This document shows, piece by piece, positions 3,404 through 52,452 of a DNA stretch of 64,000 bases; position 1 is the first letter of the stretch; each line of letters begins with the position of its first letter. The notes beneath the pieces are model-generated. The model was given only the letters and a program-made list of their open reading frames with translations. It was not told where the DNA came from and made no database searches. The position numbers were made by a program, and so were the translations under genes. The stretch comes from Bradyrhizobium sp. sBnM-33 (lineage in GTDB: Bacteria; Pseudomonadota; Alphaproteobacteria; Rhizobiales; Xanthobacteraceae), in the NCBI RefSeq assembly GCF_032917945.1, contig NZ_CP136624.1, forward strand, positions 7,068,001 through 7,132,000. Direction: 5' to 3'.

Positions 3404-3487
3404 CGTCATTGCGAGCGGAGCGAAGCAATCCACGCCTCAGCTCGGGGACAGATGGATTGCTTCGTCGCTTCGCTCCTCGCAATGACG
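3404..3487. repeat. Palindromic intergenic repeat, family C
   Basis: Inverted repeat with arms CGTCATTGCGAGCGGAGCGA...GCAATCC and GGATTGCTTCGTCGC...CTCGCAATGACG. It is one of at least seven full copies of this family in the window, and lies between the oxygenase start and the DUF2848 gene end. Confidence 0.85.
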
Positions 3488-3498
3488 GCGGCGCCGCG

Positions 3499-9770: not shown

Positions 9771-9856
9771 CGTCATTGCGAGCGTAGCGAAGCAATCCAT
9801 CTCACCGAGTATGCGGACGCATGGATTGCTTCGTCGCTTCGCTCCTCGCAATGACG
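9771..9856. repeat. Palindromic intergenic repeat, family C
   Basis: Arms CGTCATTGCGAGCGTAGCGA and TCGCTTCGCTCCTCGCAATG. It lies in the gap between the convergent SMP-30 and ppc genes, where it could end both transcripts. Confidence 0.85.
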
Positions 9857-16361: not shown

Positions 16362-16371
16362 ATCCCCGTGT

Positions 16372-16492
16372 GTCCCGGACGCGGCGCAGCGTTCTTCACG
16401 CTGCTCCGCAGAGCCGGGAGCCAATGCCAGTGGCAAGCAAGATGGACCCCGGCTCTGCAGTGCATCGCTAACGCGCTGCACTGCGTCCGGGG
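16372..16492. repeat. Palindromic intergenic repeat, family G
   Basis: TGTCCCGGACGCGGCGCAGCG on the left and CGCTGCACTGCGTCCGGGG on the right, with CCGCAGAGCCGGG/CCCCGGCTCTGCAG inside. It is nearly the same as the copy at 38396-38525. Confidence 0.85.
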
Positions 16493-18152: not shown

Positions 18153-18274
18153 CGTCATTGCGAGGAGCGTAAGCGACGAAGCAATCCATCGCTCCGTTAT
18201 GCCGCGATATGGATTGCTTCGCGGAGCCTGTCATCGGCGCGCGTTCGCGCGACCGCGTTGGCTCGCAATGACAG
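18153..18274. repeat. Palindromic intergenic repeat, family C, long-arm variant
   Basis: The left arm is the short type (CGTCATTGCGAGGAGCG). The right arm carries an extra nested hairpin (TGTCATCGGCGCGCG...CGCGACC) before GGCTCGCAATGACA. Separates convergent ligase and GFA genes. Confidence 0.85.
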
Positions 18275-21077: not shown

Positions 21078-21223
21078 CGTCATTGCGAGCCAACGGGTCG
21101 CGCGAATGCGCGCCCGATGACAGGCGCCGCGAAGCAATCCATTCCTCAACACGGGGATAGATGGATTGCTTCGTCGCTGCGCTCCCTTGCGCAAACGCTT
21201 CGCGTTTGTCGCAGGCAATGACG
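21078..21223. repeat. Palindromic intergenic repeat, family C, long-arm variant
   Basis: The left arm is the long type (CATTGCGAGCCAACGGGTCG, with nested hairpin and CGATGACAGGCG). The right arm is GGATTGCTTCGTCGC then a nested AAACGCTTCGCGTTT hairpin before GCAATGACGG. Lies between convergent crotonase and DUF6285 genes. Confidence 0.82.
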
Positions 21224-24479: not shown

Positions 24480-25845
24480 TCATGTATGGACGGCTCCCTC
24501 TCGGCAAGGGCTTTTTGGTGCTTCGGCAATGGATCGGGGAGCGGTCATGTATACGGCCTCGAGAAGCGGCCATTGACCGCGGGCCCTGATGGAGATCGCG
24601 GATCGAATTCCAATCATTGCGGCGCGCTGTGACGCGCGATGACGTGTCGGAGTGTTTCGATCCTGGTTTCCTGACCATTTGCCATCACACCTTAATTGCC
24701 CTTCCGATAGGGGATGAGCGCGAGCGCGGCGGCTGTCGCCCTTCAACTAGGCAGCAGCCGGCGCGCTCGCGCGGTCTCGGTAAACTTCTCCTTTGCTCAG
24801 CATGGCCCAGAGGATGCGCGCGGCTTTAGCGGCGAACGCCACCATGGCGACCTTGTAAGGCCGCCGCGCCAAAAGATCGCGCAGCCACGGGTCGCTGACG
24901 CCGCGCCTCTTTTGCTGCCGCAGATGGGCGCTGGCTCCGCTGATCAGCAGCGCGCGCAACATACGATCTCCCTGTTTGGAGATACGCCCTGGGCGATGCT
25001 TGCCGCCAGTACCGTGGTCCTTGCCGGTGAGCCCGATCCAGGCGGCGAAGTCCCGACCGGAGCGAAACACCTTCGCATCGGGCACTTTGGCCAACACCGT
25101 ACTGGCGATGATCGGGCCGACGCCTGGGACTTCCATCAGCCGGCGCGCGTCCCGATCGCATCTGGCAGCCTTCGCGATCTGCCGTTCAAGCACGCGTTCA
25201 TCGGCATTGAGCGCCTGCCAGTGCTGCGCCAGCATCAACAGAGCACATCGCATCATCTCCGGAATCTCTTCGCTCGGCTCCTCAAGCTTGGCCATCAGCT
25301 CACACAGCCCCTGATGTCCTTGCGCGGCCACGATCCCGAGCTCGCTCAGCGCTGCCCGCAAGGCGTTTGCCACCATCGTCCGCTGGCGAACCAGCAAGGC
25401 ACGTGTGCCATGAACCGCCAGCGTGGCCTGTTGCTCGACGCTCTTCACCGGAACAAAGCGCATCGTCGGCCGGCCCACTGCCTCGCAGACACCTTCCGCA
25501 TCCCGGCCGTCGTTCTTGTTGCGCTTGACGTAGGGCTTCACATAGGCCGGCGGCATCAGTCGCACCTCATGGCCATAGCGCCTGATCACCCGGGCCCAAT
25601 GATGTGCGCTCCCGCAAGCCTCCATGCCAACCAGGCACGGTGGCAACCCCGCAAACTACGGCAGCCCGCCTGAGCTGCCGCCTCAGCACAACCCTTCCCG
25701 ATGCATCAATCCCGTGAACCTGAAACACGTTCTTAGCCAGATCCAACCCAATCGTGCTAATCTTCGTCATGGACGGTCCCCTTGTCTGGTTCGACTCAGC
25801 ATCGCCAGTCTGGCACATCGATGCCGTTCGGGGGCCGTCCACCCC
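24480..25845 (-). mobile_element. IS110-type insertion sequence (approximate limits)
   Basis: The element holds one disrupted transposase gene plus about 265 bp of non-coding sequence on its 3' side. IS110-family elements usually lack terminal inverted repeats, and none is obvious here. Similar ATGGACGG(C/T)(T)CCC motifs lie at 24486 and 25769 in direct orientation. The limits are set by the flanking family F repeat (left) and family C repeat (right), and are uncertain by tens of bases. Confidence 0.6.
24747..25770 (-). pseudogene. IS110-family transposase, frameshifted
   Basis: The N-terminal part starts at ATG 25770 (MTKISTIGLDLAKNVFQVHG, with the first catalytic Asp of the DEDD domain). 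The reading frame is lost near 25655-25658, just before FAGLPPCLVGMEACG. The rest continues in another frame to 24747 with KRNKNDGRDAEG (two acidic residues), LMEVPGVGPIIAS and a C-terminal TransposIS20 domain (DFAAWIGLTGKDH). The coding span is 1,024 bp, not a multiple of three, which agrees with a single frameshift. The element is therefore probably unable to move on its own, unless recoding occurs. Confidence 0.87.
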
Positions 25846-25960
25846 ATCATTGCGAGCCAACGGGTCGCGCGAATGCGCGCCCGATGACAGGCTCCGCGAA
25901 GCAATCCATCTTTCCGTGTACGAGGTGACAATGGATTGCTTCGCTGCGCTCGCAATGACG
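25846..25960. repeat. Palindromic intergenic repeat, family C, long-arm variant
   Basis: The left arm is almost the same as that at 21078 (ATTGCGAGCCAACGGGTCGC with nested GCGCGAATGCGCGC and GATGACAGGCTCC). The right arm is the short type ending CTCGCAATGACG. Confidence 0.85.
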
Positions 25961-33624: not shown

Positions 33625-33710
33625 CGTCATTGCGAGGAGCGAAGCGACGAAGCAATCCATCTTTATTTTACGTGGAGAGATGGATTGCTTCGCTTGCGCT
33701 CGCAATGACG
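33625..33710. repeat. Palindromic intergenic repeat, family C
   Basis: CGTCATTGCGAGGAGCGAAG on the left and GCTTGCGCTCGCAATGACG on the right with AAGCAATCCATC/GATGGATTGCTT inside. It ends 1 bp before the monooxygenase stop codon at 33712. Confidence 0.88.
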
Positions 33711-36749: not shown

Positions 36750-36829
36750 CGTCATCGCGAGCGAAGCGAAGCAATCCATCTCGCCAAAAAAGTATGGATT
36801 GCTTCGTCGCTCCGCTCCTCGCAATGACG
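36750..36829. repeat. Palindromic intergenic repeat, family C
   Basis: CGTCATCGCGAGCGAAGCGA and TCGCTCCGCTCCTCGCAATG arms. Located between the nitronate monooxygenase stop and the thiolase-like gene. Confidence 0.85.
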
Positions 36830-38390: not shown

Positions 38391-38395
38391 CTCAT

Positions 38396-38525
38396 GTCCC
38401 CGACGCGGTGCAGCGCCCTTGGCGCTGCTCCGCAGAGCGGGGACCCATTGCGGCCAGTCGCTGCTCTCGCAACATGGGCCCCGGCTCTGCAGCGCATCAC
38501 TTGCTTGCTGCGCTGCGTCCGGGGC
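38396..38525. repeat. Palindromic intergenic repeat, family G
   Basis: GTCCCCGACGCGGTGCAGCG on the left and CGCTGCGTCCGGGGCG on the right, with CCGCAGAGCGGGG/GCCCCGGCTCTGC inside. It lies between the convergent thiolase-like gene and the first chemoreceptor gene. Confidence 0.85.
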
Positions 38526-38545: not shown

Positions 38546-40285
38546 TCACGCCGCCCGCACCGTATCCAGGAACTTGCCGACCTCGAGCTTGAGGCGGTTC
38601 GAGTCGGCAGAGAGCGACTGTGCCGCCGAAAGCACCTGCGCGGAAGCCGAGCCGGTCTCGCCGGCCCCGCGTTGCACGTCGATGATGTTGGCTGAAACCT
38701 GCTGGGTGCCATCGGCCGCCTGCTGCACGTTGCGGGAGATTTCCTGGGTCGCCGCTCCCTGCTCTTCCACCGCCGCGGCGATGGTCGAGGCGATCTCGGC
38801 CAGCCGTTCGATGGTGCCACTGATTTCCTTGATGGCGCCGACGGATTCGTGAGTCGCGCCCTGGATGCCTGATATCTGCTGACTGATCTCACCGGTGGCC
38901 TTGGCGGTTTGTTCGGCGAGCGCCTTCACTTCCGACGCCACCACCGCAAAGCCGCGGCCGGCCTCACCGGCGCGCGCCGCCTCGATCGTGGCGTTGAGCG
39001 CCAGCAGGTTTGTTTGGCCTGCAATGGTGTTGATGAGTTCGATGACGTCGCCGATGCGCGCTGCCGCCTTCGACAATTCGCTGACCCTGTCATTGGTGGT
39101 GCGCGCCTGGTCGACGGCTTCACCCGCCATTCGCGCCGATTCCTGCACCTGGCGGCTGATCTCGTTGACCGAAGACGACAGTTCCTCGGTCGCCGATGCA
39201 ACCGACTGCACGTTGGTGGTCGCCTCCTCGGAAGCAGCGGCCACCGTGGTCGTTACCTGCTGTGCGCGCTCCGCGGTCGCGGTCAGCGTGCTGGCGGAAG
39301 CCTCGAGTTCGGTAGAGGCCGACGATACGGTTTCGACGATCTCGCCGACGGCTGCCTCGAAGGAATCCGCGAGCCTGACCATTTCAGCCTTGCGCTGCTG
39401 GGCGGCGATCTGGTCCTGCTTGATCTTGGCCTCCGCCTCGTCGCGGGCCTTCTGTTCCGAGACGATCTTGAACTTCTCGACTGCGCCGGCGACCGCGCCG
39501 AGCTCATCCTTGCGTCCAAGGCCCGGCAGCACCACCGCGAAGTTACCGCCGGCGAGCTCGTCCATCGAGACGCTCAGCGCGCGCATCGGACGGGCGATCA
39601 TGAAGTAGGAGAATATGCTGGTTCCGATCAGCAACAGGATCGTGCCGATACCGATTGCCATGGATTCCCGTTCGGCCGCAGCCATTTCCCGGGCTGCTTC
39701 GGCCGCGACCTCTTCAACGCCGCGCTTTGCCAGGTCGGCGATCTGGTTGGCGAGCTGTTCGAGTTCGGCTGCGATCGGCAGCGTCGTCTCACGCGCGATG
39801 CGAACGGCTTCCTCGTTGAGCTTTGCAATTTTCGCTGCGGCATCAGTCCCGCTACCCGCGGCGGCAATCGCTTCAGCTCGAACCGCCGCAATCTGCTGAG
39901 CGCCTTTGGCATAGTCAGCCGACCTCGACTTGAGTTTTTCAATACGGGCACGATTTTCGGCCGACGAGAGGTTGAGCATCTCGTCGGCAAAACGATTCAC
40001 GGATTTGAACCGGGCGGCGAGATAGTCGGTGGCCTTTTGCATGTCCGCCGGATTGTTGACGAGGCGGAGATCCCGCACGCCGATCTGCATGCCGCGAATT
40101 GAAGCCTTCGCATCCACCGCATCCCGGGCAATCGCTTGCTGCACGGACTTGCGAGCATCCGCATCGCGGATGGCAGTGTTGGCGCGCATCTGGATGATCA
40201 CCATCGTACCAACAAGCAGAACGCCAAGGCCCGAGGCGATGCCGAGCTTGGCGCCGATCGACAGGTTCAGGATGAAACGGGACAT
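38546..40285 (-). CDS. Methyl-accepting chemotaxis protein (chemoreceptor 1)
   Basis: A 579-residue inner-membrane chemoreceptor. TM1 is about residues 10-30, then a helical periplasmic domain of about 170 residues, TM2 (about 205-228, [18 protein letters not shown]), a HAMP linker ([19 protein letters not shown]) and the cytoplasmic signalling hairpin. The conserved tip reads [20 protein letters not shown], followed by [15 protein letters not shown]. There is no C-terminal CheR/CheB tether pentapeptide; it ends FLDTVRAA like its three neighbours. Ligand unknown. First of four receptor genes on the minus strand. Good ATG at 40285 (MSRFILNL). Confidence 0.95.
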
Positions 40286-40544
40286 GGCCTTGCGTCCTTC
40301 AAATGAAAACGACCCGGGGAAACCACAGCGCTGCCGTTTATTTCCCGCACGGCGGGATCACGGTGAAGAAGTGCCGGGCCAATTTGGGACGAGCCGATTC
40401 GTGCGAACGAAGGGCTCCTGCGGCGGCATAGCCACAGAGCGGCACCCATGACCGCCAACCTTTCATACGATGGTTAATCAGCGTCTAAGGCGGCACGGTC
40501 CGGGAATTGGTAGTATTACGGACGCGCAGAGCGCTTGACCGCCC

Positions 40545-41513
40545 TCATGCCGGATCGTCCAACCGCTTGCGCGATGCCGACAGCGTCTGCTGCGGTGTTT
40601 CGCCAAACAGCTCGCGATAGAGCGCGGTGAACTCGCCCATGTGCCAGAAGCCGTTCACGAGCGCGACCGCCTTCACCGACTGCACCGACGCGCCGCTCAC
40701 CAGTTGTTGTCGTACATTCCACAGCCGCCGCAGCCGCATGTAGCGATGCATGCTCATGCCGCGAATGGCAACCACTGCGTTATGCAGCGTTCGCACCGAG
40801 ACCCCGAGTTGCCGCGCCACGTCGGCGCTGTACAGCGTCTTGCCGGCGTTGTCGGCCACGAACTCGTCGAGCTTACGGACCAGCGCCAGATAGTGGCTCA
40901 GGCTCAGGCGCTTGGCTTCGGGTGTGGGCGATGCCGCAGCCAGCGCCAGATCGACCGCCTGCAGGATCGATTCTTCGACGTGCTCGATCACGTTCGGCTG
41001 CGCGAAACTATCGGGCGAATGCGAAGCGAGCGTCAGCGCATCGCGAACCGTCACCCGGAGTGTCTCGCATCTATCCGGCAGCGTCGCGATCAATTGAGCA
41101 CTGTCGGCATCGCCTGGCCAGCCGCGATCGTCGATGGAAGCAAAATTCACAAGCGCGACCAGATTGGCCCGCTGTTCGACGATCTCACACGTCGCGGTAC
41201 CCTTGACCAGGAGCAGGGTCGGCGCACGGGCTTCAACGCCGTCGATGATCAGAGAAGCCGCATCATCCATCGTGAAGCCGACGATCGCGCCGGTCGTGGA
41301 ATACTGCATCTGCAGAATTCGAGGGAACGTCCGCTGCAGATGGACCGAACAGGACTTCAACTTCAACGAGGCGAAACCGGCGGCGAAGTGCTTGGCGTCG
41401 ATCGGAATGCTCTTGGCATCGCCCAGTCCTTCGATGTTCCGGAAACGATCGATGTCCAGAGACCGGCTAACCTTTACGAACTCAGACTCAACCAGTTCAT
41501 CAAGCAACGACAC
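40545..41513 (-). CDS. AraC-family transcriptional regulator
   Basis: A 322-residue regulator. The C-terminal 100 residues hold the two helix-turn-helices of the AraC/XylS family: LYSADVARQLGVSVRTLHN and VKAVALVNGFWHMGEFTALYREL, ending in FGETPQQTLSASRKR. The N-terminal 220 residues would be the effector domain, resembling AraC-binding-like-domain (PF14525) proteins. GTG 41513 is the first start in frame. It is placed between chemoreceptors 1 and 2 on the same strand; it could control one of them or catabolic genes elsewhere. Its usual target site cannot be named. Confidence 0.9.
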   Translation of the reverse strand: MSLLDELVESEFVKVSRSLDIDRFRNIEGLGDAKSIPIDAKHFAAGFASLKLKSCSVHLQRTFPRILQMQYSTTGAIVGFTMDDAASLIIDGVEARAPTLLLVKGTATCEIVEQRANLVALVNFASIDDRGWPGDADSAQLIATLPDRCETLRVTVRDALTLASHSPDSFAQPNVIEHVEESILQAVDLALAAASPTPEAKRLSLSHYLALVRKLDEFVADNAGKTLYSADVARQLGVSVRTLHNAVVAIRGMSMHRYMRLRRLWNVRQQLVSGASVQSVKAVALVNGFWHMGEFTALYRELFGETPQQTLSASRKRLDDPA

Positions 41514-41978
41514 GCGGCGGTTATCCGAGCCGTCGGCGGCGATCGTCGCAACAACGAAAAAGGACGCTAGCCGGGATTGAGAAGTATCGTATGCGCAACT
41601 TGACCATGACGGATGGGTGCCTCGATGCGCCTTTCCTTTGGATGAAGCGGGTTGAGTCCTGGCTGATCTTTATTGACGCAGAACACATGGCAGATCTTCC
41701 GGCATCAGACGTTCTGACATCAGATCGTCACAATACTTCTGCCTCTTACCACTTTTTCCCGACCGCGAAAGTTCGTTCGCCGCATTTTGTCCCAGTTTCG
41801 CCCACTGCGATTGATCGGCACGCGCAGCAATCGCAACTTTACGATCTAGGGATGTCTCCCGCTCCTCTTGCAGCCGACAAACCGACTGCTCATGGCAATT
41901 CGCGTTTCTGATTCGGATCGTCAGGGATCGCGAAGCCGGTATTAGGAACCGGCTTCGAACCGAATAGGAGGTACGAGA
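41514..41978. other. 465-bp gap upstream of the AraC gene
   Basis: It contains no convincing gene. A 106-codon frame at 41591-41911 (+) has AT-rich third positions unlike its neighbours. A repeat of GTTCTGACATCAGAT/CATCAGACG type at about 41702-41728 could be an AraC-type half-site pair. The right end has the hairpin at 41931-41957. Confidence 0.4.
41931..41957 (-). terminator. Hairpin downstream of chemoreceptor 2
   Basis: CGAAGCCGGT (41931-41940) pairs perfectly with ACCGGCTTCG (41948-41957) around a 7-nt loop. It lies 20 nt after the chemoreceptor 2 stop. There is no T-run on the exit side, so termination may need Rho or be partial. Confidence 0.5.
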
Positions 41979-43679
41979 TCAGGCCGCCCGCACCGAGTCG
42001 AGGAACCGGCCGACCTCGAGCTTGAGACGGTTCGAATCGCCTGACAGCGATTGCGCCGCCGCAAGCACCTGCGAAGACGCCGACCCGGTTTCGCTGGCGC
42101 CGCGCTGCACGTCGGTGATGTTGGAGGACACCTGCTGGGTGCCCATGGCAGCCTGCTGCACGTTGCGGGAGATTTCCTGGGTCGCGGCGCCCTGCTGTTC
42201 CACGGCCGCCGCAATCGTCGACGAAATCTCCGACAGCTTCTCGATGGTGCCGCTGATCGCCTGGATCGCGTTCACGGATTCCTGGGTGGCGGCCTGGATG
42301 CCGGTGATCTGCTGGCCGATTTCGCCGGTGGCTTTGGCGGTCTGCTCGGCGAGCGCCTTTACCTCTGAGGCCACGACCGCAAAACCGCGACCGGCTTCGC
42401 CAGCGCGTGCCGCCTCGATGGTGGCGTTGAGCGCAAGCAGGTTGGTCTGGCCGGCGATGGTGTTGATCAGTTCGACGACGTCGCCGATGCGGGTTGCCGC
42501 CTTCGACAGTTCGCTGACGCGGTCATTGGTGGTGCGTGCCTGGTCCACGGCGTCGTTGGCCATCCGCGCCGATTCCTGCACCTGGCGGCTGATCTCGGTG
42601 ACGGACGAGGCCATCTCTTCGGTGGCCGATGCCACCGACTGCACGTTGGTGGAAGCTTCTTCGGAGGCTGCCGCAACCGTGGTCGTGAGTTCCTGCGCGC
42701 GCTCCGCGGTCGCGGTGAGCGTGCCGGCCGAGACCTCGAGCTGGCTCGACGCCGCCGAGACGGCCTCGACGATCTGGCCGACCGCGGCTTCGAAATCGTC
42801 GGCCATCTTGCTCATGTCCGCCCTGCGGCTTGCCACGGCGCGGGTCTCCGCCGCGCGTTGCTCGGCCTCCAGCGACTGGCGGGCGACGGCGTTGCTCTTG
42901 AACACTTCGACGGCTTTGGCCATCTCGCCAACCTCGTCGCCGCGCCCGATGCCCGGCACTTCAACGGCAAGATTGCCGCTGGCAAGATCGTTCATGGCGG
43001 CGGTCATGCGCTGCAGGGGCGCGGTGATGCTCCGCGCCACGAAGATCGACACCGCAAGCATGAACAGCAGGATCACGCCGGAGACGATCAGCGAGCGCTG
43101 GGTTGACACCCAGGCCTGTGCGTTGAGGTCGTCGATGTAGACGCCGGTGCCGATGACCCAGTTCCACGGCGCAAAACCGACCACGTAGGACAGTTTCGGC
43201 TGAGGCTTGTCGAAGCCCGGCTTGGGCCATTCATAGGGGACGAAGCCTGAGCCGTCCTTTTTGACGGTGTTGACGAAGTCGACGAACAGCAGCTTGCCGT
43301 TCGGGTCCTTGTAGGCCGACAGATCGTTGCCGTTCATCTCTGACCTGATCGGATGCATCACCATTTTCGGATGCATGTCGTTGATCCAGTAATAGTCGTT
43401 ATTGCCGTAACGAAGCGCCGCGACGCGCGCCATCGCCTGCTTCTGCGCGTCGGCGTCCGAAACACCGCCCTTCTGCGCCGCGGCATGCTCTTCCTTGACG
43501 ATGCCAATCGCGAGTTCGCCGAGGTGCCGCAATTCAATCTGCTTCTGCTGATTGAGGCTCGAAGCCAGCTCGCGCGACTCGAGAAAGGTCACGCCCAGGA
43601 GCCCGACGAAGCTGAGGCAGATGAGGCCATAGATCTTTCGGCCAACCGTCAGCTTGGCCCGACGTACCATTGCAAACAT
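41979..43679 (-). CDS. Methyl-accepting chemotaxis protein with single Cache domain (chemoreceptor 2)
   Basis: A 566-residue chemoreceptor. TM1 (about residues 15-35) is followed by a periplasmic sCache_2 domain with the hallmark [15 protein letters not shown] (about residues 97-111) and [22 protein letters not shown]2 is about 190-210, then HAMP ([20 protein letters not shown]) and a signalling domain almost the same as in the other three receptors. sCache_2 domains typically bind short carboxylates. It ends FLDSVRAA without a CheR-binding tail. The ATG at 43679 (MFAMVRRAK) was chosen for its GGAGATC SD; the longer frame (43718) is less likely. Confidence 0.95.
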
Positions 43680-43860
43680 GCTTGATCTCCACGCGACGAC
43701 GGAGGTCGTCTGTCCCATTGCGCGGAATCGTATAGGTCAGCCGCTTTCTACCCGTTAATTTTGTACTCAGTAGATCTACGGAGTCCCATTAATCAGGACC
43801 CCTGCGGGCCCAGTGCTATCGCATATGCGGTCATGTAGTGGTTCGGTGTGCCCACAAACT

Positions 43861-43947
43861 CGTCATGCCCGGGGCTTGTCCCGGGCATCCACGTCTTGGT
43901 CTCCGCGCGAGAAGACGTGGATGGGCGGGACAAGCCCGGCCATGACG
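43861..43947. repeat. Palindromic intergenic repeat, family D, in a 343-bp gap
   Basis: CGTCATGCCCGGGGCTTGTC and GACAAGCCCGGCCATGACG arms with ACGTCTTGGTCTC/GAGAAGACGT inside. The gap 43680-44022 also has an outer pair CTATCGCATATGC (43816) and GTCATATGCGACAG (43982) but no gene. Confidence 0.82.
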
Positions 43948-44022
43948 ATGCGGAAACTTGAGCGCTCGCGAGCTCAGCGCCGTCATATGCGACAGCCCTG
44001 CCCTTGCGGGGCCCGGGCGACC

Positions 44023-46053
44023 TCAGGCCGCTCGTACCGAATTCAGGAACTTGCCGACCTCGAGCTTGAGGCGGTTGGAATCCGACGACAGCGACTGGGC
44101 CGAAGAGAGCACCTGCGTCGAGGCCGATCCGGTCTCGCCGGCCCCGCGCTGCACGTCGGTGATGTTGGCGGAGACCTGCTGGGTGCCGCGGGCCGCCTGT
44201 TGCACGTTGCGGGAGATTTCCTGGGTTGCGGCACCCTGCTCTTCCACCGCGGCCGCAATGGTCGAGGATATTTCCGAGAGCTTCTCGATCGTGGAGCTGA
44301 TCGCCTGGATCGCACCGACGGACTCCTCCGTCGCGGCCTGAATGCCTGTGATCTGCTGGCCGATCTCGCCGGTCGCCTTCGAGGTTTGTTCGGCGAGCGC
44401 CTTCACCTCGGAAGCCACGACGGCGAAGCCGCGGCCGGCGTCGCCGGCCCGGGCCGCCTCGATAGTGGCGTTGAGCGCGAGCAGATTGGTCTGTTCGGCG
44501 ATGGTGTTGATGAGTTCGACCACTGCGCCGATGCGGGCGGCCGCCTTCGCCAATTCGCTGACCCGGCCATTGGTGGTGCGGGCCTGGTCGACAGCTTCAT
44601 TGGCCATTCGCGCCGATTCCTGGACCTGACGGCCGATCTCGGTGATCGACGAGGCCATCTCTTCGGTGGAGGAAGCCACCGACTGCACGTTGGTAGAGGC
44701 TTCCTCGGAAGCCGCAGCCACCATCGTGGTCAGCTCCTGGGCGCGTTCGGCGGTCGCGGTCAGCGTGCCGGCGGCGGCTTCGAGTTCGGTCGAAGCCGAG
44801 GACACCGTGTCCACGATTTCGCCGACCGCGCCTTCGAAATCGTCGGCGAGCTTGATCATTTCTTGCTTGCGCCGCTGCGCCGCGACCTGGTCCTGCTGGA
44901 CCTTGGCCTCGGCTTCCTCGCGCGCCTTGTGTTCGGCGTTCTCGCGGATGACCGTCACCGTCTTGGCGAGGTCGCCGATTTCGTCGCCGCGGCCAGCGCC
45001 GGGAATCTCGACGTCGAGATTGCCGCCGGCCATTTCGCCCAGCGCACCGTTCAGCCGCGTCATCGGACGCGCGACCCCGAGGAAGGAGAATACCACCGAA
45101 GCGATCAGCGACGCGACGACGATGATCGCCATGATCAGGTTGATGCGGTTGGCGCGCTCGGTATCGGCCATGACCTCGTCTTTGGAGGTCTTGGCATCCC
45201 TTTGCGCGGCCTCGACGGTTGTTTCCATCAGATTGGCAACATCTGCGGCGGCCTTGACGGTGCGGTTGGTGATGATGTCGTTCTTGACCTGCTCGGTCTT
45301 TACCGCTTCCTCATTGGCGGCCAGGAAGCGCTTGACGGTCGAGGAAAGGTTGCTGACCACGACCAGCAACTCGCGATCGTCGGCCTCGCCGCGCAGCTTG
45401 TTAAAGACGTCCTTCAGCGAGGCCTCGGTCTTGGCCATCTCCGTGACCAGGTTGGCATCGCCGGTCGCGCCGAGCTTCCAGGCGGCTGCCCGCAGCGCGT
45501 TCACCTTTCCATCGGCCTGAAATAGCAGACGCTCGATCTCGAGACGGTTATCCAACTTCGCCATGGCCGGCAACTTCAACTGAGCATCGACCGCCTTGGT
45601 CCATTCCTCCGAGATCACCGAGCGCTTCTCGATCTGCGCCAGCAACGTGCTCTGCGCCTTGGCGAGATCTTCCACGGCGGCGGTAAAGCCATCCATCAAG
45701 GTCTTGATCTTCTGCAGCCGTTCCCTGGCGTCAGGCCGCTGCGCGGTCGCGAGCGCGGCGTCCAATTCCTTTGCTGCGCTCGCCTTGTGGCGCTGCAAAT
45801 CGGCAATGGCCTTTTCGACCTCGGCGGGGGCTCGCGCCAGCCTGACGTCGCCGGCGGCAAGCTGAATCTTGCGCAGGTCGATATGGGCAGAGAGCGAGTT
45901 GTCGGCCACTTGCTGCGACCGGGCGGCACGCTCGCTGGCTTCCTCGATCCTCGATTCGGTGACCATCTGGTTGGTCACCATGCCGATCGCCAGCAGGACG
46001 CCGACCGCGCCGGCCAAGCCCAGTTTGTTTCCGATGCGGTTGAGCTTGATCAT
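44023..46053 (-). CDS. Methyl-accepting chemotaxis protein with long helical sensor (chemoreceptor 3)
   Basis: A 676-residue chemoreceptor. TM1 ([20 protein letters not shown], about residues 12-31) is followed by a long, all-helical periplasmic part of about 300 residues, probably two stacked four-helix bundles (HBM-type). TM2 is about 346-368 ([23 protein letters not shown]), then HAMP and the shared signalling domain with [19 protein letters not shown]. Note E for G in the IAGQT segment. It ends [11 protein letters not shown] receptors elsewhere sense TCA acids or purines, but this is only suggestive. ATG 46053 (MIKLNRIG) was chosen; an upstream 58-codon extension has no family similarity. 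Confidence 0.94.
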
Positions 46054-46245
46054 GTCGACGACCCCAAATTCTTCTGAAGCAGTTTTTCCGGAGGCGGAAT
46101 TCGCGATGCAAGGAACCGGCAGCCTGCGCGCGCGAATCCCGGAGATGCAGGGGCAGCCTAGCGGGGACCGGTTAATTTCCGCTTGCGTGAAACTACGGAT
46201 TGTCCAGCCGGGTTGCGGCGCCGCCAAATTCGCGCAGCACGAGAA

Positions 46246-46278
46246 AAGGCCCGGCGCCCTTTCCGGGAGCCGGGCCCT
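46246..46278 (-). terminator. Rho-independent terminator of chemoreceptor 4
   Basis: On the minus strand GGCCCGGC (46276-46269) pairs with GCCGGGCC (46255-46248), followed at once by TTTTCTCG. It lies 24-60 nt after the chemoreceptor 4 stop codon, separating it from chemoreceptor 3, so each receptor is probably its own transcription unit. Confidence 0.75.
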
Positions 46279-46299
46279 TCGTCTGCGGCCGGCCGGTTG

Positions 46300-47991
46300 T
46301 CACGCTGCCCGGACCGATTCCAGAAACTTGCCGACTTCGAGCCTGAGGCGCTGGCTGTCGCCCGACAGCGACTGCGCCGCCGACAGCACCTGCGAGGCGG
46401 CCGCACCGGTCTCGCCGGCGCCGCGCTGCACATCGGTGATATTGGTGGAGACCTGATGGGTGCCGCGGGCAGCCTGCTGCACGTTGCGGGAGATTTCCTG
46501 GGTTGCGGCGCCCTGCTCTTCCACGGCGGCCGCGATAGCCGAGGAGATCTCCGCCAGCCTTTCGATGGTGCCGCTGATTTCCTTGATCGCGCTAACAGAC
46601 TCCTGGGTCGCGCCCTGGATGCCGGCAATTTGCTGGCTGATCTCGCCGGTGGCCTTTGCCGTCTGTTCGGCCAGCGCCTTCACCTCCGAGGCCACGACCG
46701 CAAAGCCGCGGCCGGCTTCGCCCGCGCGCGCCGCCTCGATGGTGGCGTTGAGCGCCAGCAGATTGGTCTGGCCTGCGATGGTGTTGATGAGTTCGACGAC
46801 GTCGCCGATCCGGCCCGCCGCCTTGGACAATTCGCTGACCCGCTCGTTGGTGACGCGGGCCTGACCGACTGCGTCTGTCGCCATCCGCGCCGACGCCTGC
46901 ACCTGGCGGCCAATCTCGGTGACCGAGGAAGAAAGCTCTTCAGTCGCCGAGGCCACGGACTGCACGTTGGCGGAGGCTTCGCCGGAAGCCGAGGCCACCG
47001 CCGAGGTCAGCGTCTGCGAGCGCTCGGCGGTCGCCGACAGCGTGCCGGCCGACGCTTCGAGCTGCGTCGAAGCCGAAGATACCGTCTGCACGATCTCGCC
47101 GATCACGCTTTCGAAGTTGCGGGTGATGCCGTCGACCCGCCGGCCGCGCTCGATCTTGGCTTCGGCGTCAGCGGCGGCGGCTTCGTCGGCAGCTTTCTTG
47201 GCAATCAGCGCTTCCTTGAATACCTGCAAGGTATCGGCCATCGCGCCGATTTCGGTTTTCTCGCCCTGGTGCGGCACCTTCGCGCTCAGATCGCCCATAC
47301 CCAAGGCCTGCATCGGCGTGACGATGGAGGCAATGCCGCTGGAGACATCGCGAACCAGGTAGGCACTGATGCCGACGCCGATCATGACGGCGGCGCCGAG
47401 GATCAAGGCAAGCATCATGAGAGCGGCGGTGTAGCTGTCGGCCGCCTCTCTTGCCGCCTTGTCCGCGCCGGCATTGTTCAAGTCGACGCTCTTTTTCAGG
47501 ACGGCGTCGGCGTCGAGGCCGATCTTGTTGACGGTGGTGGTATTCAGGTCGTTGGCTTCGGTAGGGATATTGCCAGCCGCCTTGCGCGACAGTTCCATGA
47601 CCTCTTGGGTGCCCTTCCGATATTTATCCCATAGCTTCGACCATTCGGTATACAGCGCGCGTTCCTCCGCCGAGGTGATCAGCGGCTCGTAGGCGGCGCG
47701 GATCTTGGTGTTGCTCTCGATGACCGCAGCGAGTGTCTTTTCCATCGCCAGCTTCTCGTCCAGCGTCTCGGACAGCATGTGCTCGCGGATTACGTTGCGG
47801 TACGTAATGACGCCGGCCCGCAGGTCGCCCAGCACTCGGATGCTCGGCATCCAGTTGGTTGCGATATCGACCGTATTGGCGTTAATGGCGCGCATATTCT
47901 TCACCGCGAGCAGACCCATGCCCGCCATCGCGGCGAGCAGGAAGGCGACCACGGCGATGATCTTGGCGCGGATCGAATAGCGGGCGAGCAT
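46300..47991 (-). CDS. Methyl-accepting chemotaxis protein with 4HB sensor (chemoreceptor 4)
   Basis: A 563-residue chemoreceptor. TM1 is about residues 8-30; the periplasmic part (about 31-190) fits a four-helix bundle (4HB_MCP): [21 protein letters not shown]...[12 protein letters not shown]2 is about 191-213 ([21 protein letters not shown]), then HAMP ([22 protein letters not shown]) and the shared signalling domain ([19 protein letters not shown]). It ends FLESVRAA. The start at ATG 47991 ([10 protein letters not shown]) is clear. Related 4HB receptors sense amino acids or sugars; ligand unknown. Rho-independent terminator follows. Confidence 0.95.
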
Positions 47992-51935: not shown

Positions 51936-51954
51936 CGATTTACTGCCAAGCTCC

Positions 51955-51989
51955 CTCCACGTCATTGCGAGCGAAGCGAAGCAATCCAG
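51955..51989. repeat. Solo arm of a family C palindrome (left flank of GIY-YIG gene)
   Basis: CTCCACGTCATTGCGAGCGA followed by AGCGAAGCAATCCAG: 35 nt that match, base for base in inverted orientation, the segment 52391-52425 on the other side of the GIY-YIG gene. No partner arm is found within 100 bp. Confidence 0.9.
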
Positions 51990-52023
51990 GGCCACGGAAA
52001 AACTAATTACTTCGGGCGCTCCA

Positions 52024-52330
52024 ATGCTGGCAAGAGATCGAATGACACAGCCCTGCGTCTACATCATGGCGAGCCGCCGCAACGGAACACTCTATACAGG
52101 CGTGACAAGCAACCTCCCGAAACGAGCTTTCGAACATCGCGAAGGGCTGGTTGCGGGGTTTTCTAGAAAGCACGGGTGCAAGATTCTGGTTTGGTTCGAA
52201 CTTCATGGCAGCATGACCGAGGGCCATCACTCGCGAAAAGCAGATCAAGGCGGGCAGCCGCGCGAAAAAGCTGGCGTTGATTGAGGGCCTGAGCCCCGAC
52301 TGGAAGGATCTCTACGGCGATCTGATTTGA
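52024..52330 (+). pseudogene. GIY-YIG nuclease-family protein, frameshifted
   Basis: From ATG 52042 (or 52024) the frame reads CVYIMASRRNGTLYTGVTSN, LPKRAFEHREG and ILVWFELHG, typical of small GIY-YIG/URI-type proteins of about 95 residues. At 52217-52220 (GAGGGCC) one extra G shifts the frame. The other frame continues with the expected ITREKQIKAGSRAKKLALIE and SPDWKDLYGDLI to a TGA at 52328-52330. With one G removed the gene would be intact (96 codons). Active-site Tyr, Tyr and Arg residues lie before the shift; the Glu region is affected. Boxed by inverted palindrome arms. Sequencing error, decay or recoding are all possible. Confidence 0.87.
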
Positions 52331-52333
52331 GCT

Positions 52334-52425
52334 CGTCATTTCGGGGAAGTAAGCGATCAAGATATCCAGACCGCCTCTGCGGTGAAATTTCTGGATTGCT
52401 TCGCTTCGCTCGCAATGACGTGGAG
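52334..52425. repeat. Family C palindrome (right flank of GIY-YIG gene)
   Basis: A complete but degenerate copy: CGTCATTTCGGGGAAGTAAG...ATATCCAG on the left and CTGGATTGCTTCGCTTCGCT then CGCAATGACGTGGAG on the right. Its right arm (52391-52425) is the perfect inverted partner of the solo arm at 51955-51989. Confidence 0.85.
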
Positions 52426-52452
52426 AGAGCTGCCGTCACCAGTCTACAGCAA

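What the first reader, a model, noticed from the sequence alone, without database searches (positions are those of the whole stretch)
51955..52425. GIY-YIG nuclease gene boxed by perfect inverted arms of a dispersed palindrome
The segment 51955-51989 is, over 35 nt, the exact inverted copy of 52391-52425. Both are arms of the family C palindrome that recurs through the window, and a GIY-YIG nuclease gene lies between them. In RAYT/REPIN systems a transposase-like enzyme gene is flanked by the same palindromes that are scattered through the genome. Here the enzyme type differs: a GIY-YIG endonuclease could nick or cut hairpins and so spread the palindrome, a possible undescribed system. The arms are seen directly; the mobility is inference.
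Basis: partly seen in the sequence, partly recalled or inferred. Interest (0 to 1): 0.72.

Follow-up and report, generated by a model that had tools for sequence, protein, structure and literature searches.

The report
Nuclease gene boxed by dispersed palindromes
A small DNA-cutting enzyme gene in a soil bacterium sits between two mirror-image copies of a short palindrome scattered through the genome, and the same pairing recurs in very different bacteria, which suggests this enzyme family spreads a large class of palindromes whose mover was unknown.

Summary
Observation confirmed. The 35-nt exact inverted arms are there (41 nt at 98%). The arm is a CGTC-tagged REP with 132 copies at up to 2 mismatches in this Bradyrhizobium-like genome; 29 of 30 copies examined are halves of an ~86-bp hairpin dimer. 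The GIY-YIG gene in the window is frameshifted.

The pairing is general. Of 215 GIY-YIG genes of this clade, 113 have a CGTC-type REP on both sides, against 8 of 1547 other ORFs in the same loci; with intergenic room matched, 25 of 41 against 3 of 205. A sister GIY-YIG clade shows 0 of 36. REP type follows the protein tree, not host class (4 changes; 20.9 in within-class shuffles, 0 of 500). The unit recurs at unrelated sites, homology ending at the REPs; gene-less palindromes occupy the same site in relatives.

[quoted passage not shown] No paper listed in ten literature searches names this enzyme. Best reading: a REPIN/RAYT-like system with an unrelated, Slx1-like nuclease. Cleavage and transposition are inferred; copy number tracked the gene in one of three palindrome families tested.

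The parts
51949..51989 (+). Left outer arm of the unit; the CGTC-tagged REP proper is 51960-51989 (5' CGTC tag, 3' CCA tail toward the gene)
52005..52026 (-). Degenerate inner arm of the left REP dimer (same place as a clearer inner arm in relative G119)
   Evidence: read by eye against the G119 sequence printed
52024..52284 (+). GIY-YIG nuclease gene, N-terminal part in frame (start at 52024 or 52042); frameshifted, so a pseudogene here
52202..52330 (+). Same gene, C-terminal part readable in another frame up to the stop at 52328-52330
52334..52369 (+). Degenerate inner arm of the right REP dimer
52391..52431 (-). Right outer arm, inverted copy of the left one; REP proper 52391-52420
3404..3487 (+). 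Gene-less F1 REP dimer (84 bp), folds as one long hairpin (-29.9 kcal/mol for 3404-3488, z -6.8)
9771..9856 (+). Gene-less F1 REP dimer (86 bp)
18153..18273 (.). F1 REP dimer with a second palindrome nested in one arm
21078..21223 (+). F1 REP dimer with nested palindromes in both arms
25845..25960 (.). F1 REP dimer with a nested palindrome in the left arm
33625..33710 (-). Gene-less F1 REP dimer, arms in the opposite order
36750..36829 (+). Gene-less F1 REP dimer (80 bp)

Best explanation
The 51949-52431 block is one (decayed) autonomous copy of a mobile element family. Its ends are CGTC-tagged palindromic repeats and its only gene encodes a ~95-residue, single-domain, Slx1-like GIY-YIG nuclease. 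Shown: gene and arms form a unit that recurs at unrelated sites; nuclease clade and palindrome type are inherited together across bacterial classes; the protein is under purifying selection; and the same palindromes exist in far larger numbers as gene-less dimers. Inferred: the nuclease recognises its cognate palindrome when it is extruded as a hairpin or cruciform (in replication or supercoiling), cuts it near the branch or loop, and thereby starts copying or moving of the palindrome and, in cis, of its own gene. It would thus be the missing dedicated enzyme of CGTC REPs, analogous to RAYT for GTAG REPs, with unrelated chemistry.
For: ORF-level control with matched intergenic space: both-side CGTC REPs 25/41 vs 3/205, inverted arms 26/41 vs 1/205; unmatched 113/215 vs 8/1547. 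Inverted arms (score >=20) against sliding windows: 59/82 vs 4/5281 and 36/64 vs 0/1611, 48/77 vs 7/2455. Strict REP detector: 27/62 boxed vs 0/33,099 windows. Specificity: within-genome permutation 0.573 vs 0.394 (sd 0.028), 0/1000; REP type on the protein tree 4 changes vs 22.6 shuffled, 0/500, and 0/500 when shuffled within host class, while host class itself changes 18 times. Unit: blocks of about 405 bp delimited by REPs in unrelated contexts. Same-site states with gene, with dimer only, or with neither; Sinorhizobium filled/empty pair, 95.8% identity in the matched pieces; unit between sufB and sufC in Azospirillum. dN/dS median 0.37, maximum 0.77, in 481 of 1929 non-syntenic pairs with dS < 1.5. 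Presumed active-site positions invariant in 20 rows; best structural matches UPF0213 (E 8.5e-4), then UPF0213, Slx1 and UvrC at E 0.02-0.3. F6 palindrome copies: median 52.5 with gene (n=8) vs 4 without (n=17), p=0.003. The genome's only PF01797 (Y1_Tnp) match is bracketed by GTAG palindromes.
Against: F1 palindrome copies do not depend on the F1 nuclease gene: median 113.5 with (n=6) vs 95 without (n=19), p=0.92; F2b: 24 (n=5) vs 14 (n=20), p=0.13. So one of three families shows the dependence, and gene presence was assigned by me from arms and matches. Genome G008 has no match to the window protein yet 157 F1 copies. The F6 test is not corrected for phylogeny, and two of its eight 'with gene' genomes have a broken gene or weak arms. 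Of 215 clade-I genes, 61 show no CGTC REP on either side and 77 no strong inverted arms. The expected outward orientation of the tag was seen by pattern in 61 of 106 armed genes, inward in 8, both in 8, unclear in 29. No insertion event with exact single-base ends was captured: the strict scan found 0, the looser one found empty sites with ragged edges. No target-site rule was found (flank complementarity 65/500). I saw no biochemistry on these proteins.
Confidence: 0.6

Rival explanations
1. Homing parasite. The GIY-YIG gene is a selfish gene that uses existing CGTC palindromes as its homing site: the nuclease cuts a gene-less palindrome and the break is repaired from a gene-bearing one. The palindromes themselves are spread by something else.
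For: The same site carries the gene in some species and a canonical gene-less dimer in another (G000, G119, G130 vs G023). In Sinorhizobium K101 the site holds only palindromes where strain Ak57 holds the unit. GIY-YIG domains are known homing nucleases (PMC1564403, passages). It would explain why F1 copy number is independent of the gene and why G008 has REPs but no gene.
Against: Window, Azospirillum and Shinella units are flanked by whole dimers on each side, not by one split dimer (by eye). No DNA-binding NUMOD or intron/intein context; the protein is the bare domain. It leaves the spread of CGTC REPs unexplained. F6 copies do track the gene.
Confidence: 0.22
2. Passenger or landing-site effect. 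Palindromes are frequent beside any small gene in intergenic space, or REPs attract insertions as they do for some IS elements, and the pairing has no functional meaning.
For: REPs are concentrated in intergenic DNA, and REPs are reported as targets of insertion sequences (PMC1525189, title and start of abstract in a search listing only).
Against: The intergenic-matched ORF control is 3/205 vs 25/41. The sister small GIY-YIG clade has 0 of 36 CGTC REPs. REP type co-varies with protein clade within genomes and across classes. Neutral arms would have decayed over the divergences sampled (52-85% identity to the query in the 80 loci).
Confidence: 0.08
3. Domesticated structure-specific nuclease. 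The protein limits or repairs damage from palindromes (cuts cruciforms), and proximity to its substrate is regulatory or self-limiting; it does not spread them.
For: Slx1-like fold; prokaryotic Slx1-like proteins were predicted to act in double-strand break repair (PMC1564403 section 11).
Against: Patchy distribution (139 of 249 genomes have any match, the sister clade included), many paralogues and many broken copies (intact-like 65 of 82 and 51 of 64), and units at non-homologous sites look selfish rather than housekeeping.
Confidence: 0.06
4. A RAYT (Y1 HUH transposase) moves the CGTC palindromes in trans and the GIY-YIG genes hitch-hike.
For: RAYTs are the proposed movers of GTAG REPs (PMC3733652 abstract and passages). 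One Y1_Tnp gene exists in this genome.
Against: That gene has GTAG palindromes on both sides and no F1-type head within about 1 kb (the one TGTC-tagged hairpin found beside it is the same GTAG palindrome read on the other strand). Di Nocera et al. found no tyrosine transposase gene flanked by CGTC repeats.
Confidence: 0.04

Closest known systems
REPIN / RAYT (REPtron) systems
   Same: Enzyme gene boxed by inverted copies of a short palindrome that is scattered through the genome, mostly as gene-less head-to-head dimers; several enzyme-palindrome pairs can coexist in one genome; palindromes carry a 4-nt tag at the foot of the hairpin
   Different: The enzyme is an unrelated GIY-YIG nuclease, not a Y1 HUH transposase; the tag is CGTC/TGTC, not GTAG; both kinds occur in this genome
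CGTC-tagged REP superfamily (Di Nocera et al. 2013, PMC3733652; per its section 6 includes neisserial dRS3 and Rickettsia RPE-4/RPE-6)
   Same: CGTC/TGTC/CCTC 5' tag, CCA tail, head-to-head dimers, alphaproteobacterial bias; Bradyrhizobium is listed as a host
   Different: That paper reports no associated transposase gene; here 154 of 215 clade-I GIY-YIG genes have such a repeat on at least one side and 113 on both. The F1 arm of the window has a shorter, imperfect stem than the 8-9 bp they give
Stand-alone prokaryotic GIY-YIG nucleases of the Slx1 cluster (UPF0213 / COG2827; solved 1zg2, 1ywl)
   Same: Same fold, size and invariant residues; the COG number is recalled
   Different: The published phylogenomic survey (PMC1564403; passages and section 11; the word stem 'palindrom' does not occur in its text) discusses repair and restriction-modification links. 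It notes a GIY-YIG domain recently inserted into an HsdR gene, which a mobile unit could explain
GIY-YIG homing endonucleases (I-TevI type)
   Same: GIY-YIG catalytic domain in a selfish element
   Different: No NUMOD targeting domain, no intron or intein, ends are palindromes
MITE / insertion sequence pairs
   Same: Non-autonomous short elements plus a rarer coding copy with the same ends
   Different: No known transposase; no target-site duplication was demonstrated

Membership tests
REPIN/RAYT system | Enzyme is a Y1 (HUH) tyrosine transposase, Pfam PF01797 | tested here: not met
   Gene matches only GIY-YIG PF01541; the genome's one PF01797 match lies elsewhere
REPIN/RAYT system | Palindromes carry the GTAG tag | tested here: not met
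   Tag is CGTC in the window; the RAYT-like gene of this genome is the one with GTAG palindromes on both sides
REPIN/RAYT system | Enzyme gene flanked by the same palindromes that are dispersed in the genome | tested here: met
   generally 113 of 215 both sides
CGTC-tagged REP superfamily | 5' CGTC (or TGTC/CCTC) tag and 3' CCA tail | tested here: met
CGTC-tagged REP superfamily | 8-9 bp stem with 4-5 nt loop | tested here: inconclusive
   Met for families such as F2 (30-nt arm folds at -11.4 kcal/mol, z -4.9); the F1 arm of the window alone folds poorly (-2.7 kcal/mol, z about 0), but a whole F1 dimer is a strong hairpin
CGTC-tagged REP superfamily | Mostly arranged as head-to-head dimers | tested here: met
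   29 of 30 F1 copies examined in this genome (read by eye); 66 distinct dimers in the loci fetched
GIY-YIG homing endonuclease | Extra DNA-targeting domain (NUMOD) and location in an intron, intein or phage context | tested here: not met
   Single ~95-residue domain (no NCBIfam family above cut-off in 4 proteins); flanks are an aldolase-like and an ABC-transporter gene
GIY-YIG homing endonuclease | Cleaves the unoccupied target site | not testable with these tools
   needs biochemistry
UPF0213/COG2827 (prokaryotic Slx1-like) | Fold and conserved GIY..YIG, Arg, Glu positions | tested here: met
   (invariant Y7, Y18, G20, R28, H32, E65, N84 among others). That these are catalytic positions is recalled
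UPF0213/COG2827 (prokaryotic Slx1-like) | Structure-specific cleavage of branched DNA or hairpins | not testable with these tools
   known for eukaryotic Slx1 (PMC6902002, start of abstract in the listing); not shown for these proteins
Insertion sequence / MITE | Target-site duplication | not tested
   No systematic test; none obvious by eye in the 45 flank pairs printed

The most novel reading that the evidence does not exclude
Stand-alone Slx1-like GIY-YIG nucleases are a previously unrecognised class of transposition enzyme for palindromic DNA. One clade spreads the whole CGTC superfamily (alphaproteobacterial REPs, neisserial dRS3, rickettsial and legionella relatives, cyanobacterial and Bacteroidota look-alikes), and a second clade spreads a different superfamily of dispersed palindromes (the CCTGAG...TCGAAGG type), each nuclease being specific for its own hairpin. 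Bacterial genomes would then hold two unrelated kinds of REP machine, HUH-based and GIY-YIG-based, at times in the same cell.
Probability: 0.4. Interest if true: 0.93.

Novelty: categorically new. Interest (0 to 1): 0.84.

Why it matters
Tagged REPs (GTAG and CGTC together) were reported from more than 80 species in 8 phyla, and the 2013 survey that defined them left the mover of the CGTC half as an open question ('apparently lack a dedicated transposase'; PMC3733652 abstract). The association found here names a concrete candidate, gives matched enzyme-palindrome pairs in many species, and turns the question into a simple cleavage and insertion assay. If right, a DNA-repair-like nuclease fold has been recruited as a mobility enzyme for hairpin DNA, independently of HUH transposases.

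Tried and rejected
(1) 'Arms F1 only': scanning GIY-YIG loci for the window's own arm found it only at the window gene among six PF01541 genes of this genome; looking for any inverted arms then showed that other copies carry other CGTC-type families. (2) Copy number as a test of dependence, three families, chosen by me: F1 negative (p 0.92), F2b not significant (p 0.13), F6 positive (p 0.003); only the 25 genomes of the window's genus were used, the 16 others in the search having few or no copies. (3) Insertion into a palindromic target: flank complementarity of 66 dimers not above chance, 65/500. (4) Exact empty sites: strict scan 0, looser scan 124 candidates with ragged edges; the best pair came from Sinorhizobium records. 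(5) Near-versus-far REP density exaggerates enrichment because REPs are intergenic; replaced by the intergenic-matched ORF control, whose gene calls are a crude longest-ORF scheme. (6) RAYT as mover: rejected. (7) A first dN/dS figure (median 0.24, 115 pairs) used an extra cut on dN and an incomplete synteny list; replaced (0.37, 481 pairs). (8) NCBIfam gave no family for three of four proteins and a sub-threshold hit for the fourth.

Dropped or partial data: all 75 rows were examined (62 in set A, 13 in A2, plus 7 further loci in A2). Of the 30 loci, 5 loci of the window's genus and one unframed locus (L173) were dropped. 40 further clade-I rows and 36 clade-II rows were chosen by hand from a truncated listing. 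3 of 80 loci were dropped for contig ends, and 2 of 80 from the tree for length; itself kept the best 80 of 586. In one search, 215 of 226 clade-I loci had enough flank. In one search, 9 of 78 rows had no REP label. Of 36 plasmid-collection records with a match, 11 gene loci were fetched.

Literature: ten searches in an open-access library without preprints. In seven of them more papers matched than were listed, so only listed titles were judged; none of these showed a link between GIY-YIG genes and REPs. That is absence from those lists only.

Full report
WHAT IS THERE. The window lies in a 9.18-Mb single-contig genome. The genus is taken as Bradyrhizobium because contig C1 of same-genus genome G012 has the length, 374,118, of a named Bradyrhizobium contig. 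Between an aldolase-like gene and a branched-chain-type ABC-transporter gene, 51949-51989 and 52391-52431 are inverted copies, 41 nt at 98%; 35 nt are exact. The arm starts with CGTC and ends with CCA. Its 28-nt core has 132 copies at up to 2 mismatches in the genome, control 0. In 29 of 30 copies looked at (by eye) the core is half of an asymmetric dimer: one arm, about 20 nt spacer, and a longer inverted arm. 66 distinct dimers in the loci fetched by then are mostly 84-88 bp long. A window dimer folds as one hairpin, -29.9 kcal/mol, z -6.8. The window holds seven gene-less dimers.

THE GENE. The enclosed gene is a single GIY-YIG domain. In this genome it is frameshifted. Relatives are about 95 residues long with Y7, Y18, G20, R28, H32, E65 and N84 among the positions invariant in 20 rows. 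The AlphaFold model of an intact relative (pLDDT 95) matches UPF0213 protein 1zg2 best (E 8.5e-4), then 1ywl, Slx1 and UvrC N-terminal domains at E 0.02-0.3; by sequence profile only 1zg2 and 1ywl match.

IS THE PAIRING GENERAL? Each of the 75 matches to the window protein in 41 relatives was examined, with 7 further copies. 59 of 82 have inverted arms scoring 20 or more within 300 bp, against 4 of 5281 sliding windows in the same loci. In a phylum-wide sample the figure is 36 of 64 against 0 of 1611; in 77 of 80 loci from a titled genome collection it is 48 against 7 of 2455. By an explicit CGTC-REP test these 80 loci have REPs on both sides in 56 and on at least one side in 71; control windows 3 and 154 of 2455. 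REPs are intergenic, so the fair control is other ORFs with as much non-coding space. With at least 100 non-coding bp on each side, 25 of 41 clade-I genes have REPs on both sides against 3 of 205 other ORFs, and matched inverted arms 26 of 41 against 1 of 205; without matching 113 of 215 against 8 of 1547, and at least one side 154 of 215 against 176 of 1547 (gene calls are a crude longest-ORF scheme). A sister clade of small GIY-YIG proteins gives 0 of 36 for CGTC REPs. Of 11 gene loci fetched from the plasmid collection (36 records matched), 6 have arms scoring 20 or more (Neisseria gonorrhoeae, Sinorhizobium twice, Shinella twice at one site, Azospirillum); 3 score 13-17 but show CGTC/TGTC palindromes by eye (Planktothrix, Cyanobacteriota; Aeromonas; Spirosoma, Bacteroidota); a Rhizobium tumorigenes and a Photobacterium copy have no matched arms. 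That the gonococcal repeats are dRS3-like is recalled.

DOES EACH NUCLEASE HAVE ITS OWN PALINDROME? As far as heredity shows, yes. Many genomes have several clade-I genes with different CGTC-type families. For 106 genes with arms in 62 genomes, the arm resembles that of the nearest non-syntenic protein relative in another genome (0.573) more than when arms are exchanged among paralogues of the same genome (0.394, sd 0.028; 0 of 1000). In the titled sample the arms fall into two kinds, GTCATTGCGAG (40 of 80) and perfect-stem (31 of 80), with 9 unlabelled. On the protein tree the kind changes 4 times against 22.6 in shuffles and 20.9 (minimum 14) in shuffles within host class, 0 of 500, while host class itself changes 18 times. 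The tree is short (96 columns) and weakly supported in places. Because the arms travel with the gene, part of this is linkage. That matched arms persist between proteins only 52-60% identical to the query argues that they are functional.

IS IT MOBILE? Blocks of about 405 bp that begin and end at the REPs recur in unrelated surroundings (for example L089, L097 and L101). At the aldolase/ABC site, 3 of 30 loci (own, G119, G130) carry the gene-bearing unit; 3 (G023, G089, G118) carry an F1 dimer without gene, that of G023 at exactly the same point; 4 were unresolved or not printed; the other 20 show no F1 dimer, one having a fragment. G119 also carries a second copy in which the gene is lost and leader and trailer are joined (read by eye). 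Sinorhizobium K101, C101 and M103 match the neighbourhood in two pieces with 95.8% identity; where strain Ak57 has a gene remnant and a full unit, K101 has only palindromes, one two-tagged and one single REP (C101 and M103 not aligned). In Azospirillum lipoferum the unit sits between sufB and sufC. The protein is under purifying selection: dN/dS median 0.37, maximum 0.77, in 481 of 1929 non-syntenic pairs with dS under 1.5. Roughly a fifth of the copies look broken (65 of 82 and 51 of 64 intact-like). This is the pattern of a selfish element.

WHAT DOES NOT FIT. Copy number was compared with gene presence for three palindrome families among 25 genomes of the genus. F1: medians 113.5 with and 95 without, p 0.92; F2b: 24 and 14, p 0.13; F6: 52.5 and 4, p 0.003, uncorrected for phylogeny and with two uncertain assignments. 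G008 has no gene match but 157 F1 copies. REPs may outlive their enzyme, as reported for REPtrons lost in E. coli strains (PMC3733652, passage), but this was not shown here. No exact insertion was caught and no target rule emerged. Of 215 clade-I genes, 61 have no CGTC REP on either side. The tag faces outward by pattern in 61 of 106 armed genes, inward in 8, both in 8, unclear in 29.

MECHANISM. Shown: unit, linkage, specificity by descent, selection, occupied and unoccupied sites. Inferred: the nuclease acts on the extruded palindrome. Eukaryotic Slx1 cuts branched DNA near the branch point (PMC6902002, abstract start in the listing), and an extruded REP dimer is a branched structure, so a cut at its foot or loop followed by repair or replication would copy it elsewhere. 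The main rival is homing into existing palindromes.

KNOWN OR NEW. Di Nocera et al. 2013 (abstract, passages, section 6 and part 1 of section 17) define CGTC REPs, list Bradyrhizobium among hosts, tabulate 'association to TPAse genes: -' for CGTC, and leave the mover open. The GIY-YIG survey of 2006 (PMC1564403, passages and section 11) has no occurrence of 'palindrom'. No paper listed in ten literature searches showed the link; seven of the lists were capped and no preprints were searchable. By membership it is not a RAYT system, because the enzyme family and the tag were tested and not met; it works like one. I rate it categorically new because no described REP system that I know of uses this enzyme class; its layout is the known REPtron layout.

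Noticed in passing
L228, L229, L232, L233, L237, L238, L239, L250, L253, L261 (clade-II GIY-YIG loci): A sister clade of small GIY-YIG genes is flanked in 10 of 36 cases by inverted arms of a different palindrome type (mostly CCTGAG...TTGTCGAAGG or CCTCATCCTGAGG...CGTCTCGAAGGATGAGG, by eye), against 1 of 1380 control windows: a second nuclease-palindrome pairing.
   Followed up: partly
window 18153-18273, 21078-21223, 25845-25960: Some F1 REP arms carry a second palindrome (AACGGGTCGCGCGAATGCGCGCCCGATGACAGG and similar) nested at the same place in the arm, as if one palindrome family inserted into the loop of another.
   Followed up: no
window 51936-52449 and the orthologous site in L127-L156: The aldolase/ABC intergenic region is a hot spot: different species of the genus carry different palindromes there, including a GATGGGTAGAGCG...CGCTCTACCCATC family.
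   Followed up: partly
L003 1320-1405 and L004 1239-1314: Two other GIY-YIG genes of this genome start about 100 and 190 bp after a tRNA-Tyr and a tRNA-Ala gene, without CGTC arms of the F1 type: a different, tRNA-linked GIY-YIG type.
   Followed up: partly
L069 (G016 C710) and L285: Tandem copies of the unit: two matching genes 518 bp apart in G016, and a gene remnant next to a full unit in Sinorhizobium Ak57.
   Followed up: no
L375 (own genome 3536120): The only PF01797 (Y1_Tnp, RAYT-like) match of this genome has GTAG palindromes on both sides, so two kinds of REP machinery seem to coexist.
   Followed up: partly
window 38546-46599: Four ~300-nt direct repeats at 82-83% identity, spaced 2-3.4 kb, probably paralogous genes.
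   Followed up: no
window 16371-16492 and 38395-38524: Two copies of the TGTCCCGGACGCG...GAGCCGGGA(C/G)CCA palindrome, the type that flanks another GIY-YIG gene of this genome near 4490101.
   Followed up: partly
NZ_CP119140.1, CP090106.1, NZ_AP026896.1: Records filed as plasmids that are chromosome-sized (2.2, 3.7 and 4.9 Mb).
   Followed up: no
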